From the NCBI GenBank assembly GCA_902778625.1, contig CACYYM010000002.1, positions 1 through 64,000 on the forward strand: DNA of 64,000 bases, written 5' to 3'. Positions 9,457 through 49,163 of this stretch are shown piece after piece (position 1 is the first letter of the stretch; the number at the start of each line of letters is the position of its first letter). The stretch is from an uncultured Bacteroidales bacterium (GTDB taxonomy: Bacteria > Bacteroidota > Bacteroidia > Bacteroidales > Bacteroidaceae). The notes under the pieces were generated by a model, which was given only the letters and a program-made list of their open reading frames with translations, was not told the DNA's origin and searched no databases. The translations under genes were made by a program, and so were the position numbers.

Positions 9457-10083
9457 ATGGCAAGAGTTAACGTCAACGTTGTAGTCGTTTTCGTTTTCCT
9501 CGTTCTTGCGGTTTTGGACTTCATTCCTATGTCTTTTCCTGCTCGAATGATATTCCCTTTGCTTTGGCTCACGCTTTGTGCCTTTTGCCAAAAGCAGTGG
9601 GCACTTGCCGGAGCACTCTTCTTCTCCTTTCTTGGCGACGTGATGGGCTGGAGGAACGAGCTCATCCCTCAAATCGGCTTCTTTGCCCTCGCGCAAGTCC
9701 TATACATTATTATATATAGTGTTTTGATACCTCCCAAGCAGACTTGGTCGAAGCCTGTCAAGTTCATCCTTCTGGCTTTGATTGCTTCAGTATATGGCGT
9801 TGCAATGTTCTGGATATTCCCTCGAGTGGGAGAGAGCTTCATTCGGTATGGAATAGCTGTTTATGCCCTGCTTTTGCTTGGAATGTGTTTTGCTGCTTGC
9901 CGTCACAAATGCGCTTTCCTGATGCTCGGAGCCGTACTTTTTGTCGTTTCGGACTTCATCCTTGGCGTCCATTTGTTCGTCGAGAGAATACCCCACACCC
10001 ACCTGAGCATCATGATTCCTTACTACCTCGGTCAGTTGCTACTTTACGTCGGCACACTCAACTCCGCAAGAGGCCTTCGTTAA
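9457..10083 (+). CDS. YhhN-family membrane protein (lysoplasmalogenase-like)
   Basis: 208 residues with about eight membrane segments. The family pattern is visible in LAGALFFSFLGDVMGW, QIGFFALAQVLYIIIYS, LMLGAVLFVVSDFILG and the C-terminal IPYYLGQLLLYVG, with the conserved aspartates of GD and SDF. Human and some bacterial members cleave vinyl-ether lysolipids; whether this one does is unknown. The start at 9457 is the first ATG after the tRNA in this frame and gives a normal hydrophobic N-terminus. The gene is followed at once by a 22-bp repeat array. Confidence 0.85.
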   Translation: MARVNVNVVVVFVFLVLAVLDFIPMSFPARMIFPLLWLTLCAFCQKQWALAGALFFSFLGDVMGWRNELIPQIGFFALAQVLYIIIYSVLIPPKQTWSKPVKFILLALIASVYGVAMFWIFPRVGESFIRYGIAVYALLLLGMCFAACRHKCAFLMLGAVLFVVSDFILGVHLFVERIPHTHLSIMIPYYLGQLLLYVGTLNSARGLR

Positions 10084-10087
10084 ATAT

Positions 10088-10241
10088 TCATGTACATTTA
10101 ATTATACATACATGTACATTTAATTATACATACATGTACATATAATCAACTTAACGTGTGAAGTTTGGAAACACGACGTGTTAAGTTGAATGAATTCACG
10201 TGTTAAGTTGAGTGAAGCCACGTGTGAAGGCTAATAATAAG
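10088..10241. repeat. 22-bp dyad repeat array A (7 units)
   Basis: Seven consecutive 22-bp units starting at 10088, 10110, 10132, 10154, 10176, 10198 and 10220. Units 2 and 3 start ACATGTACAT; units 4 to 7 start ACGTGTGAAG or ACGTGTTAAG. The register is unbroken where the core changes from ACATG to ACGTG. It fills nearly the whole gap between two converging genes. See findings for the family. Confidence 0.9.
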
Positions 10242-21101: not shown

Positions 21102-21207
21102 TCATATATTGTGGAGTGCTGGCAAACTCAGCGTGTTGTGTTGGCAAACTCAGCGTGTTGTGTTGGCAAACTCAGCGTGTTATGTTGGCAGACTCGGCGT
21201 GTTGTGT
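21098..21207. repeat. 22-bp dyad repeat array C (4 clear units, 1 decayed)
   Basis: Units at 21120, 21142, 21164 and 21186 are almost identical, each holding TGGCAAACTCAGCGTGTT. A decayed unit precedes at 21098. The array lies about 100 bp after the glycosyltransferase stop. Confidence 0.9.
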
Positions 21208-21244
21208 GTTCATTCGCACTGGTGTGGAATTTCTAAATCCAATG

Positions 21245-28175: not shown

Positions 28176-28280
28176 ACGTGTTAAGTTTGTCAACTCACCA
28201 CGTTAAGTTTGTCAACTCACCACGTTAAGTTGAACAACTCGCCACGTTAAGTTGAACAACTCACCACGTTAAGTTGATTG
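28176..28280. repeat. 22-bp dyad repeat array D (about 5 units)
   Basis: Exact 22-bp units start at 28200, 28222 and 28244, each ACGTTAAGTT plus a TCAACTC or ACAACTC half. A 24-bp unit precedes at 28176 and a partial unit follows at 28266. The last unit contains the uvrB stop codon (28269-28271) and its two final codons. AGTTGAACAACT (from 28229 and 28251) is a perfect small hairpin between units. Confidence 0.92.
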
Positions 28281-30284
28281 CAGTTCCGCTTTGAGCCTGA
28301 GCATTTCGTCACGCAGAATGGCTGCATCAACGAACTCGAGGCGTTTTGCCGCTTCTTTCATCTTCTTCTCGAGGCTCGCAATCCGTTTCTTCTTCTCCTC
28401 GATACTCATCTCCTGAGCCTCTGCAACGGCAAGGACTTCATAATGAACAGGTTCTACGTAGGCTCTTTCCTCAGCTCCTTGACCGTGTTGAATGAGGTCG
28501 CCCATCGTTTGAGCTTTCCTTATCTGTTGCGGCGTAATGTGGTGCTCGGCGTTGTATCGCAGTTGCTTTTCCCTTCTGCGATTGGTCTCATTAATGGTTG
28601 CTTCCATGCTTGGGGTAATGTTATCCGCATACATGATAGCTTTGCCATTAACGTTCCTGGCTGCTCTGCCAATTGTTTGGGTCAGGCTACGCTGATTGCG
28701 CAGGAAGCCTTCCTTGTCGGCATCGAGAATGGCAACAAGCGAGACTTCCGGCAAGTCAAGACCTTCGCGCAAAAGATTCACGCCTACGAGCACATCGAAC
28801 TTGCCCATACGCAACTCGTTTAGGATGCGAACGCGCTCCAGAGTGTCAACGTCGCTATGAATGTAGGCCGTCTGAATGCCCGTTCCGAGCAGGTATTCCG
28901 TGAGCTCTTCCGCCATTCGCTTAGTTAATGTAACAACCAGAACGCGCTCTTTTCGCTCGATGCATTGCTGAATCTCCTCCATCAAATCATCTACTTGATT
29001 CAAGGTTGGACGCACTTCAATCGGTGGGTCAAGCAGTCCTGTGGGGCGGATAACTTGCTCTACGACAACACCTTCGCTCTCCGCTATCTCGTAATCGGCA
29101 GGTGTCGCGCTAACGTAAATCACCTGATTCGTCAGCTCTTGGAACTCCTCGAACTTCAGCGGTCGATTGTCTTTGGCAGCAGGTAAGCGGAAACCATACT
29201 CTACAAGCGTTGTTTTGCGCGATTGGTCGCCGCCATACATGCCATGTATCTGTGGCACAGAGACATGACTCTCGTCGATAACCATGAGGAAGTCTTTGGG
29301 AAAGAAGTCGAGCAAACAATACGGACGCGTACCTGGAGCACGACCGTCAAAGTAGCGGCTGTAGTTCTCGATACCAGAACAATGTCCGAGCTCGCGAATC
29401 ATCTCGATGTCATAAGTTACTCGCTCATAAAGACGTTTCGCTTCAAGCTCTTTCCCCTGATTTTCAAAGAAAGCAACCTGCTCGCGAAGGTCGTCCTGAA
29501 TTTGCACGATTGCACGCTCCTGAGCATCCTTCGCCGTGATGAAAAGATTGGCAGGATATATCTTATAGTTTTCATAGAGCTGCGCACGTATAAGTGTCTC
29601 GTGGTCAAGCTCTTCTATGCTGTCGATTTCGTCGCCCCAAAAGGTAATTCGAAGCAGGTAATCGCTATATGCAAGGGCAACGTCTATGGTGTCTCCTTTG
29701 ACGCGATATTCGCCTCTACTAGGTGAGATATCATTACGGACATAGAGTAATTCGTTGAGTCGGCGAAGAAGTTCGTTTCTGTCAATATTTTGTCCGACAT
29801 GAAGCTCCAGCAGGAATTCGAAGAACGTCGAAGGATTGCCCATTCCATAGATGCACGAAACGCTGCTCACCACAATCACATCCTGCCTGCCTGAGAGCAA
29901 AGCGCTCGTGGCAGAGAGTCGAAGCTTGTCAATCTCGTCGTTAATCGCCAAGTCCTTCTCGATGTAAGTGTCCGTCGCAGGCATGTAAGCTTCGGGCTGA
30001 TAGTAGTCGTAGTAGCTGACGTAGTACTCGACTGCATTGTGTGGGAAGAACTGTTTCATCTCGCCATACAGCTGGGCTGCAAGCGTTTTGTTGTGCGAGA
30101 GGATGAGGGTAGGGCGATTGATGTTTTTGATGACGTTTGCGATGGTGAACGTCTTTCCGCTACCCGTCACGCCAAGTAACGTCTGCGCCTTCACGCCTTG
30201 CCGAATGCCCTCGGTCAGTTGCTGAATGGCTTCGGGCTGGTCGCCAGTCGGTACATAATCGGAGATGAGTTCGAACTGATTCAT
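28269..30284 (-). CDS. uvrB: Excinuclease ABC subunit B
   Basis: 671 residues. UvrB verifies damage with UvrA and directs UvrC incision. Landmarks: GVTGSGKTFTIANVI (Walker A), the beta-hairpin segment YYVSYYDYYQPEAYMP, DESHV (DEAD-like box), the helicase motif VNLLREGLDLPEVSLV and QTIGRAARNVNGK, and the C-terminal UVR domain (KKRIASLEKKMKEAAKRLEF). The last codons and the stop come from repeat array D. The promoter on the minus strand lies 4 bp from the ATG. Confidence 0.98.
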   Translation of the reverse strand: MNQFELISDYVPTGDQPEAIQQLTEGIRQGVKAQTLLGVTGSGKTFTIANVIKNINRPTLILSHNKTLAAQLYGEMKQFFPHNAVEYYVSYYDYYQPEAYMPATDTYIEKDLAINDEIDKLRLSATSALLSGRQDVIVVSSVSCIYGMGNPSTFFEFLLELHVGQNIDRNELLRRLNELLYVRNDISPSRGEYRVKGDTIDVALAYSDYLLRITFWGDEIDSIEELDHETLIRAQLYENYKIYPANLFITAKDAQERAIVQIQDDLREQVAFFENQGKELEAKRLYERVTYDIEMIRELGHCSGIENYSRYFDGRAPGTRPYCLLDFFPKDFLMVIDESHVSVPQIHGMYGGDQSRKTTLVEYGFRLPAAKDNRPLKFEEFQELTNQVIYVSATPADYEIAESEGVVVEQVIRPTGLLDPPIEVRPTLNQVDDLMEEIQQCIERKERVLVVTLTKRMAEELTEYLLGTGIQTAYIHSDVDTLERVRILNELRMGKFDVLVGVNLLREGLDLPEVSLVAILDADKEGFLRNQRSLTQTIGRAARNVNGKAIMYADNITPSMEATINETNRRREKQLRYNAEHHITPQQIRKAQTMGDLIQHGQGAEERAYVEPVHYEVLAVAEAQEMSIEEKKKRIASLEKKMKEAAKRLEFVDAAILRDEMLRLKAELQST

Positions 30285-44016: not shown

Positions 44017-44030
44017 GAGAATTGCAAAAA

Positions 44031-44162
44031 AATCCACGTGTCGATTTCGCAAAATCCACGTGTCGATTTCGCAAAATCCACGTGTCGATTTCGCAAAGTT
44101 CACGTATGAAGTTGGCGAAGTTCTTGTGTGAAGTCTTGCAAGTTCTCGTGAAGTGTTAGCTC
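44031..44162. repeat. 22-bp dyad repeat array E (6 units)
   Basis: Units at 44031, 44053 and 44075 are identical, containing AATCCACGTGTCGATT, a dyad with arms AATC/GATT around CACGTG. Units at 44097, 44119 and 44141 diverge (AGTTCACGTATGAAGTT) but keep the register. The array lies between mfd and recN. Confidence 0.92.
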
Positions 44163-44254: not shown

Positions 44255-45937
44255 ATGCTGACACATCTTTCCATCAATAATTACGTCCTCATAGAGTCGC
44301 TTGATATTGACCTTGCGGCAGGCTTCTCTGTGATGACAGGCGAAACAGGCGCGGGTAAGTCCATTATTCTTGGCGCCCTTGGGCTCCTTATGGGACAGCG
44401 TGCCGATACGGGAAGCATCATGCCCGGAGCAAGCAAATGTACCGTTGAAGGAGTTTTCGATATCGAAGGCTATGGAATGCAGGCACTCTTCGAAGAGAAT
44501 GAACTTGACTATGAACCTTCGGAGTGCATCCTTCGACGTGAAGTGGCGTCAAATGGCAAGAGTCGTGCTTTTGTCAATGATAGTCCTGTGAGTGTCGTTA
44601 TATTGAGACAGATTGCCCTTCGTTTGCTCGATATACATTCGCAACATAGCAACCTGTTGCTCGAGAATCCTGCCTTCCAGTTGGGCATCGTTGATACCAT
44701 TGCAGGGCATCAGGATTTGCTTGGTCAGTATAAAGAATGTTATGCGAGAATTGTTGAGGCGAAACGTCAGCTGAAGGAGCTTGAGGAGAACTTAGCAAAG
44801 CGACAAAGCGACGAGGATTACCTGCGCTTCCAGCTCGAACAGCTTGACGAATTTAAGCCGCAAGCAGGTGAAGATGAAGAGCTTAAAGAATTGCAGAGTG
44901 CACTTTCGCATGCTGAGGACATCAAGATTGTTTTGTCATCAATTGACGCTTTGTTGAACGGGAATGATAATGACGAGAGTGCGCTTGGAGCGATTAATGC
45001 GCTTCGTCGGACAAGCCAAGCCATGCAACAGATAGCCCGCGTTTATCCCACGATTGAGTCGTATCAGGAGCGTGTCGAAAGCGCCTTGATTGAGTTACGT
45101 GATATTGCTGACGACATTAACGGACTTGCTGAAGAGGTTGAGTACAATCCCGCTCGCCTTCAAGAAGTTACGGAACGACTGGACAATCTCTTTGCTCTTG
45201 AGCAGAAGCATCATGTCAGTTCATCGGAGGAGCTTATTGCTTTGGCTGATGATATTCGTTCGCAACTCTCATTGCTTACCGATTCCGAAGAAAACATCAA
45301 AGCTTTGAAGCAACAAATAGCAGGCGAAACAGAACTGGCAACAAAGCTTGCAGAGAAGCTTTCCGCAGGTCGAACTAAGGCAGCAAAACAAGTTGAAAAG
45401 CTTGTGTCGGAATTGCTTACGGCAATGGATATGCCTGCCGTTATCTTCAAGGCCGATATGGAAAAAGTCTCGGAACTTCAACCTTCCGGTATGGACAACG
45501 TCACCTTCCTGTTTTCCGCTAACAAGAGTATGACGGCCAGACCGTTAGCAGACGTGGCGAGTGGCGGCGAGATGTCGCGAGTGATGCTTGCCTTGAAGGC
45601 TTTGACAAGCAGGCAGATGCATCTTCCGACCATTATCTTCGACGAGATTGACACAGGCGTGAGCGGCAAAGTAGCAAGCTCGATGGCGCAGATTATGGCT
45701 CAGATGAGTAGTGGTGCAAGTCAGCAGGTACTTGCCATCACGCACCTGCCGCAGATTGCTGCTAAAGGTGATGCGCATTATTTTGTTTACAAGGAGGACC
45801 AAGGCAATCGCACCTTAACGCATATCAAACAACTCGACAACGAAGGTCGCATTACAGAACTCGCTCACATGCTCAGCGGCAATACCGTAACCGAAGCTGC
45901 AAAGGAGAATGCACGACAGCTTTTGCAAGGAAAATGA
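44255..45937 (+). CDS. recN: DNA repair protein RecN
   Basis: 560 residues. An SMC-like ATPase acting early in double-strand break repair. Walker A GETGAGKSIILGALG is near the N-terminus; two coiled-coil stretches flank the middle (KRQLKELEENLAKRQSDED, LKQQIAGETELATKLAEKL); signature ADVASGGEMSRVMLALKAL and Walker B TIIFDEIDTGVSG lie near the end, with AITHLPQIAAKGD. Stop and tilS start overlap by 4 bp. Confidence 0.97.
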   Translation: MLTHLSINNYVLIESLDIDLAAGFSVMTGETGAGKSIILGALGLLMGQRADTGSIMPGASKCTVEGVFDIEGYGMQALFEENELDYEPSECILRREVASNGKSRAFVNDSPVSVVILRQIALRLLDIHSQHSNLLLENPAFQLGIVDTIAGHQDLLGQYKECYARIVEAKRQLKELEENLAKRQSDEDYLRFQLEQLDEFKPQAGEDEELKELQSALSHAEDIKIVLSSIDALLNGNDNDESALGAINALRRTSQAMQQIARVYPTIESYQERVESALIELRDIADDINGLAEEVEYNPARLQEVTERLDNLFALEQKHHVSSSEELIALADDIRSQLSLLTDSEENIKALKQQIAGETELATKLAEKLSAGRTKAAKQVEKLVSELLTAMDMPAVIFKADMEKVSELQPSGMDNVTFLFSANKSMTARPLADVASGGEMSRVMLALKALTSRQMHLPTIIFDEIDTGVSGKVASSMAQIMAQMSSGASQQVLAITHLPQIAAKGDAHYFVYKEDQGNRTLTHIKQLDNEGRITELAHMLSGNTVTEAAKENARQLLQGK

Positions 45938-47181
45938 TTGACAAAGTCAGGATATATATTGAGCGTGAGATTGGTCTTCGGCCAGATGATTTGGTTCTTG
46001 TCGCATTAAGTGGCGGAGCTGATTCCACTGCGCTTCTGCTCATTATGAAGGAGCTTGGTTACGAGGTGAAGGCTTTGCATTGTAATTTCCATTTGCGAGG
46101 CGAAGAATCTAACAGAGACCAAGCTTTCGTCGAGCGGTTTTGCAAGCAGAACGATGTGCCTTTGTCTGTCCGACACTTCGACACGGAACAATATGCGAAG
46201 GAACAAGGCATCAGCATCGAGATGGCAGCTCGCGACCTTCGTTACGATTGGTTCCGTGAGGAACTGAAAGCACTCAAAGCTTCCTGCATAGCGGTTGCTC
46301 ATCATCGTGACGACCAAGCAGAAACCATATTGCTTAACCTGTTGAGAGGTACGGGCTTGCGTGGTTTGACAGGAATGCAGCCCAAGCACGACAGCATCAT
46401 TCGTCCGTTGCTTTGTCTGAGTCGTGAAGAGATTCTTGAATATCTTGAAAGCAAGGGCCAGGACTTTGTTACAGATAGTACTAATTCCGAGCGTATCGCA
46501 CAAAGAAACCGGCTTCGTCTCGATGTCATTCCTTTGCTTCGTGACATCAATCCAGCCGCAGTCGAGCATCTTTGCCTGGCTTCCGAAAATGCTCAACATA
46601 GTCTTCCTTATTATATTAAAGGTATAGAATCTGCTTTCGAGGAGTTTGGAATCACAGAAACAAGCTTTCCTTTGGTGGCGCTTTCATCGCAGACTTTGCT
46701 TCACGAATGGCTTGCAGGCAAAGGCTTTAACGCGGCTCAGGAAGAGGAGATGCTTGGTTCTTCAACGAGCCAAGTCGGAAAGGTTTGGCACTCGAATACT
46801 TACAAAGTTTTAAGAGACCGAGAGGTTTTGATTGTTGCACCATTGAAGGAGTCATCTTTGCCTGAATTGAAGCAAGAGATTGTATCCGAAATGCAAGAAC
46901 AAGGCCCGAATGTCGCCTATTTTGATGCAGATTCAATTACAAAGCCGGTTGAAGTCAGGCCAATTTGTGAAGGCGATGCTTTTGTCCCGTTCGGTATGAC
47001 TGGCAGGAAGTTGGTAAGTGATTTTCTGACAGATCGCAAGCTTAATCGCTTCGAGAAGGCAGAGACGTTCGTGGCAACTCAAGGCGACGACATTATCTGG
47101 CTCATCGGATATCGTAGCGACAATCGTTACAGAGTTACAGACGCAACACGTCGAATTCTCAAACTCAGCGTGGTGTGTTGA
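45934..47181 (+). CDS. tilS: tRNA(Ile)-lysidine synthase
   Basis: 415 residues. TilS puts lysine on the wobble C of tRNA-Ile(CAU) so it reads AUA. The PP-loop VALSGGADSTALLLI, AVAHHRDDQAETILLNLLRG and GLRGMQ-like GLTGMQPKHDSIIRPLL are clear; the TilS C-terminal domain follows (VRPICEGDAFVPFGMTGRKLV). The last seven codons, LKLSVVC and the TGA, are encoded by the first unit of repeat array F, so the normal C-terminus was replaced or extended by the repeat. Confidence 0.96.
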   Translation: MIDKVRIYIEREIGLRPDDLVLVALSGGADSTALLLIMKELGYEVKALHCNFHLRGEESNRDQAFVERFCKQNDVPLSVRHFDTEQYAKEQGISIEMAARDLRYDWFREELKALKASCIAVAHHRDDQAETILLNLLRGTGLRGLTGMQPKHDSIIRPLLCLSREEILEYLESKGQDFVTDSTNSERIAQRNRLRLDVIPLLRDINPAAVEHLCLASENAQHSLPYYIKGIESAFEEFGITETSFPLVALSSQTLLHEWLAGKGFNAAQEEEMLGSSTSQVGKVWHSNTYKVLRDREVLIVAPLKESSLPELKQEIVSEMQEQGPNVAYFDADSITKPVEVRPICEGDAFVPFGMTGRKLVSDFLTDRKLNRFEKAETFVATQGDDIIWLIGYRSDNRYRVTDATRRILKLSVVC

Positions 47182-47248
47182 CAAACTCAACGTGGTGTGT
47201 TGACAAACTTAACGTGGTGTGTTGGCAAACTCAACGTGGTGTGTTGGC
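47161..47248. repeat. 22-bp dyad repeat array F (4 units)
   Basis: Units at 47161, 47183, 47205 and 47227, each AAACTCAACGTGGTGTGTTG-like plus two bases. The first unit is inside the tilS reading frame and supplies its stop (TGA 47179-47181). The unit sequence is close to that of array D, 19 kb away on the other strand. Confidence 0.95.
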
Positions 47249-47330
47249 AAAGATGCCTAGGTAAGATTCGTACTTTGCTCAGTAATAAAAGAAAATCTTG
47301 TTTTCTTTTTGTATTTCGCTGGCTAATTCG

Positions 47331-47338
47331 TACCTTTG
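47331..47338 (+). promoter_or_regulatory. -7 promoter element, typA operon
   Basis: TACCTTTG in CGTACCTTTGCACG, 22 bp before the typA ATG. Confidence 0.8.
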
Positions 47339-47360: not shown

Positions 47361-49163
47361 ATGCAAAGCATCAGAAATATAGCTATCATTGCCCACGTTG
47401 ACCACGGCAAAACAACTCTTGTAGATAAAATGCTTTTGGCTGGAAATCTTTTTCGAGAGAACCAGCAAACTGGCGAGCTCATGCTCGACAATAACGAACT
47501 TGAGAGAGAGCGAGGCATCACTATTCTCTCGAAAAATGTCAGCATCAACTACAAGGACACGAAGATAAACATTATCGATACTCCGGGCCATAGTGACTTC
47601 GGTGGCGAGGTGGAACGCGTGCTCAACATGGCAGACGGATGCTTACTGCTCGTTGATGCCTTCGAAGGACCGATGCCGCAGACACGCTTCGTGCTTCAAA
47701 AAGCTCTGCAGATTGGTCTGAAGCCTGTTGTTGTCATCAATAAAGTGGACAAGCCAAACTGCCGTCCTGAAGAGGTTTACGAGATGGTGTTCGACCTGAT
47801 GTGCGACCTCGATGCAACAGAAGAGCAGCTCGACTTCCCTGTCATCTATGGCTCGGCAAAACAGGGCTGGATGGCAGAGGATTGGCAAACGCCAACTACT
47901 GACATTACCTATCTGCTCGACTGCATCCTTAAGTATATTCCTGAGCCTGAAATGCTTGAAGGCACGCCGCAGATGCTCATCACAAGCCTCGACTACAGCA
48001 ACTATACTGGTCGAATCGCTGTGGGTCGTGTGCATCGTGGCACACTTCGCGAAGGCATGAACATCACGATTGCTCATCGAAATGGCGAGATGGAGAAGAC
48101 GAAAATCAAGGAACTCCACACCTTCACGGGCATGGGTAGGCAGAAGACGTCTGAGGTCAGTTCGGGTGATATCTGTGCTATCATAGGCCTGGAGCGTTTC
48201 GAGATAGGCGACACACTTTGTGACTTCGAGAATCCGGAGCCGTTGCCTCCCATCAGCATCGACGAGCCAACGATGTCTATGCTCTTCACAATCAACGACT
48301 CACCCTTCTTTGGAAAGGAAGGAAAGTATTGCACGAGCCGTCACATAGGTGAACGCTTGGAGCGCGAACTCGAGAAGAACTTGGCTCTTCGCGTTGAGGT
48401 TCCCGAGGGTTATACCGACCGTTGGATTGTCTCTGGTCGTGGCGTGCTTCATCTCTCTGTGCTCATCGAGACGATGCGTCGCGAAGGCTATGAACTGCAA
48501 GTCGGTCAGCCCCAAGTCATCTACAAAGAGATAGATGGCGTGAAATGCGAACCGATTGAGGAGATGACCATCAATGTGCCTGAGGAGTTCTCGTCGAAGA
48601 TGATTGATATGGTAACACGAAGGAAGGGCGAGATGACAAGCATGGAGAGTCAGGGCGAACGCGTCAACATCGAGTTCCTCATCCCGAGTCGCGGCATCAT
48701 AGGCCTCAGGACGAACATGCTCACAGCCAGTCAGGGCGAAGCTATCATTGCACATCGTTTCAAGGAATACCAGCCCTATAAGGGCGACATCAATCGCCGC
48801 GTCAATGGCTCGCTGATTGCTTTGGAGAGTGGCAACGCCTATGCCTATGCCATCGACCATCTGCAGGACCGCGGACGCTTCTTTATCGAGCCGCAAGACC
48901 AAGTCTATGCAGGTCAGGTTGTTGGCGAACATGTTCACGAGAACGACATTGTCATCAATGTTTGCAAAGCAAAGCAGCTCACCAATGTTCGTGCCAGCGG
49001 AACAGACGAAAAGGCTCACATCATCCCGGCTACAATCTTCTCGCTCGAGGAAGCACTCGAATACATCAAGGCCGACGAGTATGTTGAGGTGACGCCCAAG
49101 AGTATGCGCATGCGAAAGGTTATCCTCGACCACCTGGAAAGGAAGAGGGCAAATAAAGAATAG
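47361..49163 (+). CDS. typA: Ribosome-associated GTPase TypA/BipA
   Basis: 600 residues. A translational GTPase for ribosome assembly and stress. G motifs: [38 protein letters not shown] and NKVDKPNC. The BipA C-terminal domain is present ([32 protein letters not shown]). It starts an operon with the GH71/99-like gene 13 bp downstream. Confidence 0.98.

What the first reader, a model, noticed from the sequence alone, without database searches (positions are those of the whole stretch)
47161..47181. Repeat array supplies the last codons and stop of tilS
The first unit of array F starts inside the tilS frame and encodes the C-terminus LKLSVVC followed by TGA. The stop lies at a fixed place in the unit. 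The repeat has therefore moved or grown into a gene and replaced its natural end.
Basis: seen in the sequence. Interest (0 to 1): 0.6.

Follow-up and report, generated by a model that had tools for sequence, protein, structure and literature searches.

The report
Repeat array abutting the tilS end
A 22-letter DNA repeat found between genes all over this Prevotellaceae-type genome runs into the end of the tilS gene, but it accounts for only the last two codons and the stop there; in the same genome the same kind of repeat forms more of the ends of two DNA-repair genes, uvrA and uvrB.

Summary
A 4.2-copy array of 22-nt units (47160-47251) begins inside tilS, and unit 1 carries KLSVVC-TGA. All 26 nearest congeneric TilS proteins end in the same motif ([RHQ]IL[KR][LVI], mostly RILKL[ST]), with or without an array, and G035 (no array there) ends exactly RILKLSV-stop. 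So LKLSV is native; its codons happen to resemble the repeat core CAAACTYARCGTG. Only V-C-stop is new.

Ten species including this one have 22-nt repeats behind tilS, in exact register with its Val codon in seven. The codons after Val differ by species and match the next repeat unit closely in four. Array turnover therefore seems to rewrite the extreme 3' end.

The repeat is genome-wide: 55 arrays in 464 kb, period 22, almost all intergenic and close to gene 3' ends. It fits the described 'constant size, variable sequence' bacterial tandem repeats (20-23 nt), whose role is unknown.

The parts
45934..47181 (+). tilS, tRNA(Ile)-lysidine synthetase, 415 aa
   Evidence: TIGR02432 8e-55 and TIGR02433 above cut-off; ORF
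47158..47172 (+). native codons L-K-L-S-V of tilS; from 47160 on they are also the first part of repeat unit 1 (core CAAACTCAGCGTG)
   Evidence: RILKL[ST]-type ending in the 26 nearest relatives, array or not
47173..47181 (+). V-C-stop (GTG TGT TGA): the part of the tilS end that differs from relatives and equals the repeat unit
47160..47251 (+). 22-nt array 'F': units at 47160, 47182, 47204, 47226, then CAAAG of a fifth
   Evidence: TRF
47308..47338 (+). possible Bacteroidetes-type promoter of typA, TTTG-N19-TACCTTTG, downstream of the array
   Evidence: read from the sequence; consensus from general knowledge, not tested
47361..49163 (+). typA/bipA GTPase, next gene
   Evidence: TIGR01394 3e-271
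28269..30284 (-). uvrB; last codons QST and TAA lie in an array
   Evidence: NCBIfam UvrB; 11 of 19 relatives stop at AEL, AEM, AEC or AE, the other 8 have other tails
28180..28277 (-). 22-nt array at the uvrB end, core ACTTAACGTG on the uvrB strand
   Evidence: TRF
44018..44149 (.). 22-nt array between mfd and recN (ATCCACGTGTCGATTTCGCAAA)
21107..21212 (+). 22-nt array with the same core (CAAACTCAGCGTG) as the tilS end, not at tilS
10075..10231 (+). two 22-nt arrays of different sequence (CATGTACATTTAATTATACATA and ACGTGTTAAGTTGAATGAAGCC) overlapping the end of the gene that stops at 10083

Best explanation
The array is one of hundreds of intergenic 22-nt minisatellites of this genome that sit near gene 3' ends. 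At tilS the native, conserved last codons (AAA CTC AGC GTG, K-L-S-V) resemble the repeat core and act as the front part of unit 1. Turnover of the array in 22-nt steps (slippage or unequal recombination: inferred) has homogenised everything after the Val codon with the next unit, so only V-C and the stop are repeat-made (shown by comparison). At uvrB and uvrA, where no such native match is seen, the array forms the new tail and its own stop triplet ends the gene (shown by comparison with array-free relatives; how the array got there is inferred). What the arrays do is not shown. My best guess is a DNA-level spacing constraint of about two helix turns, such as sites for a nucleoid or other DNA-binding protein; the strict size with changing sequence and the weak two-fold symmetry point that way.
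For: Native LKLSV: RILKL[ST]-type ends in array-free relatives, incl. G035 RILKLSV-stop. Register: repeat cores lie at 22 nt or its multiples from the tilS Val core in G000, G027, G109, G112, G080, G008 and G091; at 23 in G089 and about 23 in G036; at 48 in G005 (G036 counted by eye). Tails after Val differ by species, and unit 1 equals the next unit at 19-21 of 22 places in G000, G027, G109 and G080. uvrB AEL-QST-stop against AEL-stop; uvrA PK-LDTLS-stop against PK-EEHTK-stop. Genome-wide: 55 arrays of period 22 in 464 kb, 0-3 for each of ten other periods; CAAACTYARCGTG with one mismatch in 239 places against 5 for the reversed pattern. Near 3' ends: median 45 nt against 212 expected.
Against: The match of unit 1 to the next unit is weak in G008, G091, G112 and G089 (11-15 of 22). 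The TilS tree does not make the array-bearing species one clade; well-supported branches force at least 2 gains or losses, so independent joinings or losses are needed. Turnover itself was not observed between strains. UvrB tails also vary in array-free relatives. The tilS array folds no better than shuffles. No binding protein was identified. Symmetry is partly due to a few sequence classes: over 11 non-redundant units the excess is modest (7.0 against 5.8).
Confidence: 0.72

Rival explanations
1. One reading: the repeat moved or grew into tilS and replaced its natural end, LKLSVVC-stop.
For: The unit covers these codons; replacement of this kind is seen at uvrA and uvrB.
Against: LKLSV or close variants are in array-free relatives; at most V-C-stop is new.
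Confidence: 0.1
2. The array was born at tilS: the gene end was duplicated in tandem and founded the repeat.
For: G005 carries a 48-nt direct duplication of its own tilS 3' end, so such duplications happen. Unit 1 is the only unit whose core is held by protein coding.
Against: The same core occurs in dozens of arrays elsewhere, for example 21116-21207 and the uvrB array, so tilS is not needed as founder of the family. It could still have seeded this local array from a chance match.
Confidence: 0.15
3. No interaction: a neighbouring array simply abuts tilS and the resemblance of its native codons to the core is chance.
For: AAA-CTN-AGC/ACC-GTG is a natural way to encode KLSV/KLTV; G008 and G035 end identically (CCGTGTGA) with and without an array.
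Against: Exact 22-nt register in seven of ten species, and bases after Val that equal the next unit in four.
Confidence: 0.2
4. As to function: the arrays are RNA hairpins in 3' UTRs (terminators or mRNA protectors).
For: Near gene 3' ends and enriched between convergent genes (19 of 53 arrays in 17% of spacer length). As a set they fold better than column-shuffled arrays (mean z -1.6 and -1.8). uvrB array z -4.55.
Against: The tilS array does not fold better than shuffles (z -0.15 and -0.19; +0.9 and +1.2). No terminator was called at the tilS array. Arrays also lie between divergent genes (7 of 53).
Confidence: 0.2
5. As to function: selfish or neutral minisatellites, tolerated where they do least harm.
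For: Species differ widely in array number; arrays come and go at a locus (uvrA, uvrB, tilS). Location near 3' ends and absence over 5' ends fits purifying selection.
Against: Neutral slippage alone does not explain why the unit is 22 nt in almost all arrays of many species while the sequence changes.
Confidence: 0.3

Closest known systems
Constant-size, variable-sequence bacterial tandem repeats (Subirana and Messeguer; PMC8161180)
   Same: One unit size dominates the genome, sequences vary, a short motif recurs in the units of a species; tandem 20-23 nt repeats are stated for many bacterial groups; role unknown.
   Different: Bacteroidota are not named in the two papers read. Here the size is 22, units are partly palindromic, and arrays lie at gene 3' ends and take over stop codons, which I did not find discussed there.
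BrickBuilt MITE of Porphyromonas gingivalis (PMC4596501)
   Same: Short tandem unit (23 nt), intergenic, Bacteroidales.
   Different: Unit 23 not 22; one sequence family with leader and tail and inverted-repeat ends; 19 copies; reported never to overlap a genuine coding sequence.
REP / tagged palindromes (GTAG and CGTC families; PMC3733652)
   Same: Short palindrome plus tetranucleotide (here CGTG), extragenic, many copies.
   Different: Strict head-to-tail tandem arrays; no RAYT gene found in the genome; the tag differs; head-to-tail dimers are rare in REPs.

Membership tests
Constant-size, variable-sequence tandem repeats (20-23 nt class) | one repeat size dominates the genome | tested here: met
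   55 arrays of period 22; 0-3 for each of periods 17-21 and 23-27 in 464 kb
Constant-size, variable-sequence tandem repeats (20-23 nt class) | sequence of the unit varies between arrays and species | tested here: met
   11 non-redundant units in this genome; other units in congeners, 30 arrays of 22 nt against at most 5 of any other period
Constant-size, variable-sequence tandem repeats (20-23 nt class) | at least four units in an array | tested here: met
   4.2 copies at tilS; some other arrays are shorter
Constant-size, variable-sequence tandem repeats (20-23 nt class) | short motif shared by the units of one species | tested here: met
   CGTG in 47 of 55 consensus units, CATG in the other 8 (phase was chosen to maximise CGTG)
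REP elements mobilised by RAYT | REP-associated tyrosine transposase (PF01797) in the genome | tested here: not met
   no match in a genome about 89% complete; the same search rings in 5 of 14 control genomes
REP elements (tagged palindromes) | GTAG or CGTC tag | tested here: not met
   tag-like tetramer is CGTG or CATG
REP elements (tagged palindromes) | stem-loop | tested here: inconclusive
   set as a whole folds better than shuffles, the tilS array does not
BrickBuilt MITE | 23-nt unit | tested here: not met
   unit is 22
BrickBuilt MITE | leader and tail with terminal inverted repeats | not tested
   array flanks were not aligned with each other
CRISPR array | repeats separated by unique spacers | tested here: not met
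   units adjoin without spacers

The most novel reading that the evidence does not exclude
A genome-wide set of fixed-size (22-nt), partly palindromic arrays, kept at constant unit length across a genus while the sequence changes, repeatedly takes over the 3' ends of housekeeping genes, so that unit turnover keeps rewriting protein C-termini and stop codons. The fixed size would reflect a DNA- or RNA-level constraint that can be tested with matched empty and filled sites (uvrA, uvrB, tilS).
Probability: 0.35. Interest if true: 0.6.

Novelty: new member of a known kind. Interest (0 to 1): 0.4.

Why it matters
Constant-size bacterial tandem repeats have been called enigmatic. This genus offers a comparative set: arrays that differ in sequence but not in size, with filled and empty sites at the same genes. 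It also shows that such arrays are not strictly outside genes: they can set where a protein ends, which matters for annotation and for reading C-terminal differences between strains.

Tried and rejected
REP/RAYT mobility: no Y1 transposase found. RNA hairpin or terminator at the tilS array: no better than shuffles, no terminator call. Arrays as three-frame stop modules (22 is not a multiple of 3): rejected as a general role, since 17 of 55 units have no stop triplet on either strand. Single origin of the tilS array: not supported by the TilS tree, which is itself poorly resolved. A search of named genomes for relatives gave only one near locus. Gene calls in the census are my own simple codon-usage calls, not a published gene finder.

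Full report
WHAT IS THERE. tilS (45934-47181) ends ...RRILKLSVVC-TGA and a 22-nt tandem array runs from 47160 to 47251. In phase from the Val core, unit 1 differs from the next unit at one base. The literal observation is right. One detail is not: TGA occupies its place only in units 1 and 2, while units 3 and 4 have TGG, and the 22-nt step shifts the frame so that only unit 1 is read as tilS.

TilS C-termini were read in the 29 congeneric genomes nearest by the C-terminal half and in an earlier, overlapping set of 29. The 26 nearest all carry [RHQ]IL[KR][LVI], mostly RILKL[ST], at the end, whatever follows the gene; the three further ones have KIIKL, KILKL and RIIQL. G035 has no array at the stop and ends RILKLSV-TGA; G136 ends RILKLTI, G020 RILKLSLAN, G012 HILKLSLIMT. 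G008 and G035 share the end CCGTGTGA although only G008 has 22-nt repeats right behind it. LKLSV is thus native and the array did not supply it. What the window species has in addition is V-C before the stop.

THE EXTREME END MOVES WITH THE ARRAY. In ten species (the window's included) 22-nt repeats follow tilS. Cores lie at 22 nt or its multiples from the tilS Val core in seven, off by one in two, and at 48 in one (G005), where a 48-nt stretch of the tilS end is itself duplicated. After the Val the codons are VC, ASL, DNC, DNS, VKS, none, or ANCQTRRV, and in four species unit 1 equals the next unit at 19 to 21 of 22 places. In G080 a whole unit is read as protein. I infer that the native codons, which resemble the core, serve as the front of unit 1 and that array turnover homogenises what follows. 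The TilS tree suggests several gains or losses of the array; its well-supported branches force at least two.

CLEARER CASES IN THE SAME GENOME. uvrB (28269-30284, minus) ends AELQST-TAA, where QST-TAA is array sequence; of 19 relatives read, 8 end AEL-stop and 3 more end AEM, AEC or AE then stop, while 8 have other short tails. uvrA (contig C2:122538-125342, minus) ends PKLDTLS-TGA inside an array of about eight units; the three nearest relatives read end PKEEHTK-TGA, with the start of the next gene overlapping that stop. That small next gene is not present at the array in the window genome; the gene beyond the array is instead a homologue of one lying further downstream in two of those relatives. 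So a replaced gene end goes together with a local loss of sequence there; which came first is unknown.

GENOME-WIDE FAMILY. In 464 kb taken from three contigs there are 55 period-22 arrays and between 0 and 3 for each of ten other periods. By extrapolation that is about 360 in the genome. Of the 55, one lies in a called gene and one at the edge of the stretch. The other 53 lie at a median of 45 nt from a gene 3' end against 212 in random placement (lowest of 500 trials 65), none overlaps a gene 5' end, and convergent spacers are over-represented. Unit consensuses fall into classes: CGTG-TTAAGTT-NNNN-AACTTAA, CGTG-CGGCGTT-NNNN-ATCCCCG and CATG-TATGTAT-AATT-ATACATA. They are partly self-complementary: pairs next to the core exceed all 2000 shuffles, but classes of related arrays inflate this. 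In stretches of up to 20 kb from 20 other species of the genus period 22 again dominates, with different sequences.

HOW IT MAY WORK. Shown: which codons and stops are repeat sequence, by comparison. Inferred: slippage or unequal recombination as the rewriting process. Unknown: how arrays spread and what they do. RNA structure is significant for the set but absent at tilS. No RAYT transposase was found. The fixed size with free sequence favours a spacing constraint at the DNA level, a proposal already made for such repeats in the literature (PMC8161180, read).

RELATION TO WHAT IS KNOWN. The arrays meet the tested features of the constant-size, variable-sequence tandem repeats of Subirana and Messeguer. 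They are not REP/RAYT elements, BrickBuilt or CRISPR by the tests listed. I found no report of such arrays taking over gene ends in the library searched, but that library lacks most subscription papers, probably including the first description of the class.

VERDICT. The array belongs to a known, unexplained kind.

Noticed in passing
window 28180-28282 and 28269-30284 (-): uvrB takes QST and its TAA stop from a 22-nt array; many array-free relatives stop right after AEL.
   Followed up: yes
L106:18386-18560 (contig C2:122386-122560): uvrA ends LDTLS-stop inside an array; the nearest relatives end EEHTK-stop with a 4-nt overlap to a small gene that is not found at this place in the window genome.
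   Followed up: partly
L117 (genome G005), tilS 3' end: A 48-nt direct duplication of the tilS 3' end lies right behind the stop.
   Followed up: partly
window 10080-10146; also contig C1 and C2 arrays: A second 22-nt family, CATGTATGTATAATTATACATA, is an almost perfect palindrome and forms eight other arrays in the 464-kb census.
   Followed up: partly
window 44018-44149: Array between mfd and recN that folds strongly as RNA (z -4.2 on the minus strand).
   Followed up: partly
tilS downstream neighbours in L115-L140: The gene after tilS is typA in the window genome, G036 and G035 but a convergent gene in several other array-bearing relatives, so gene order changes at this array-filled spacer.
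   Followed up: partly
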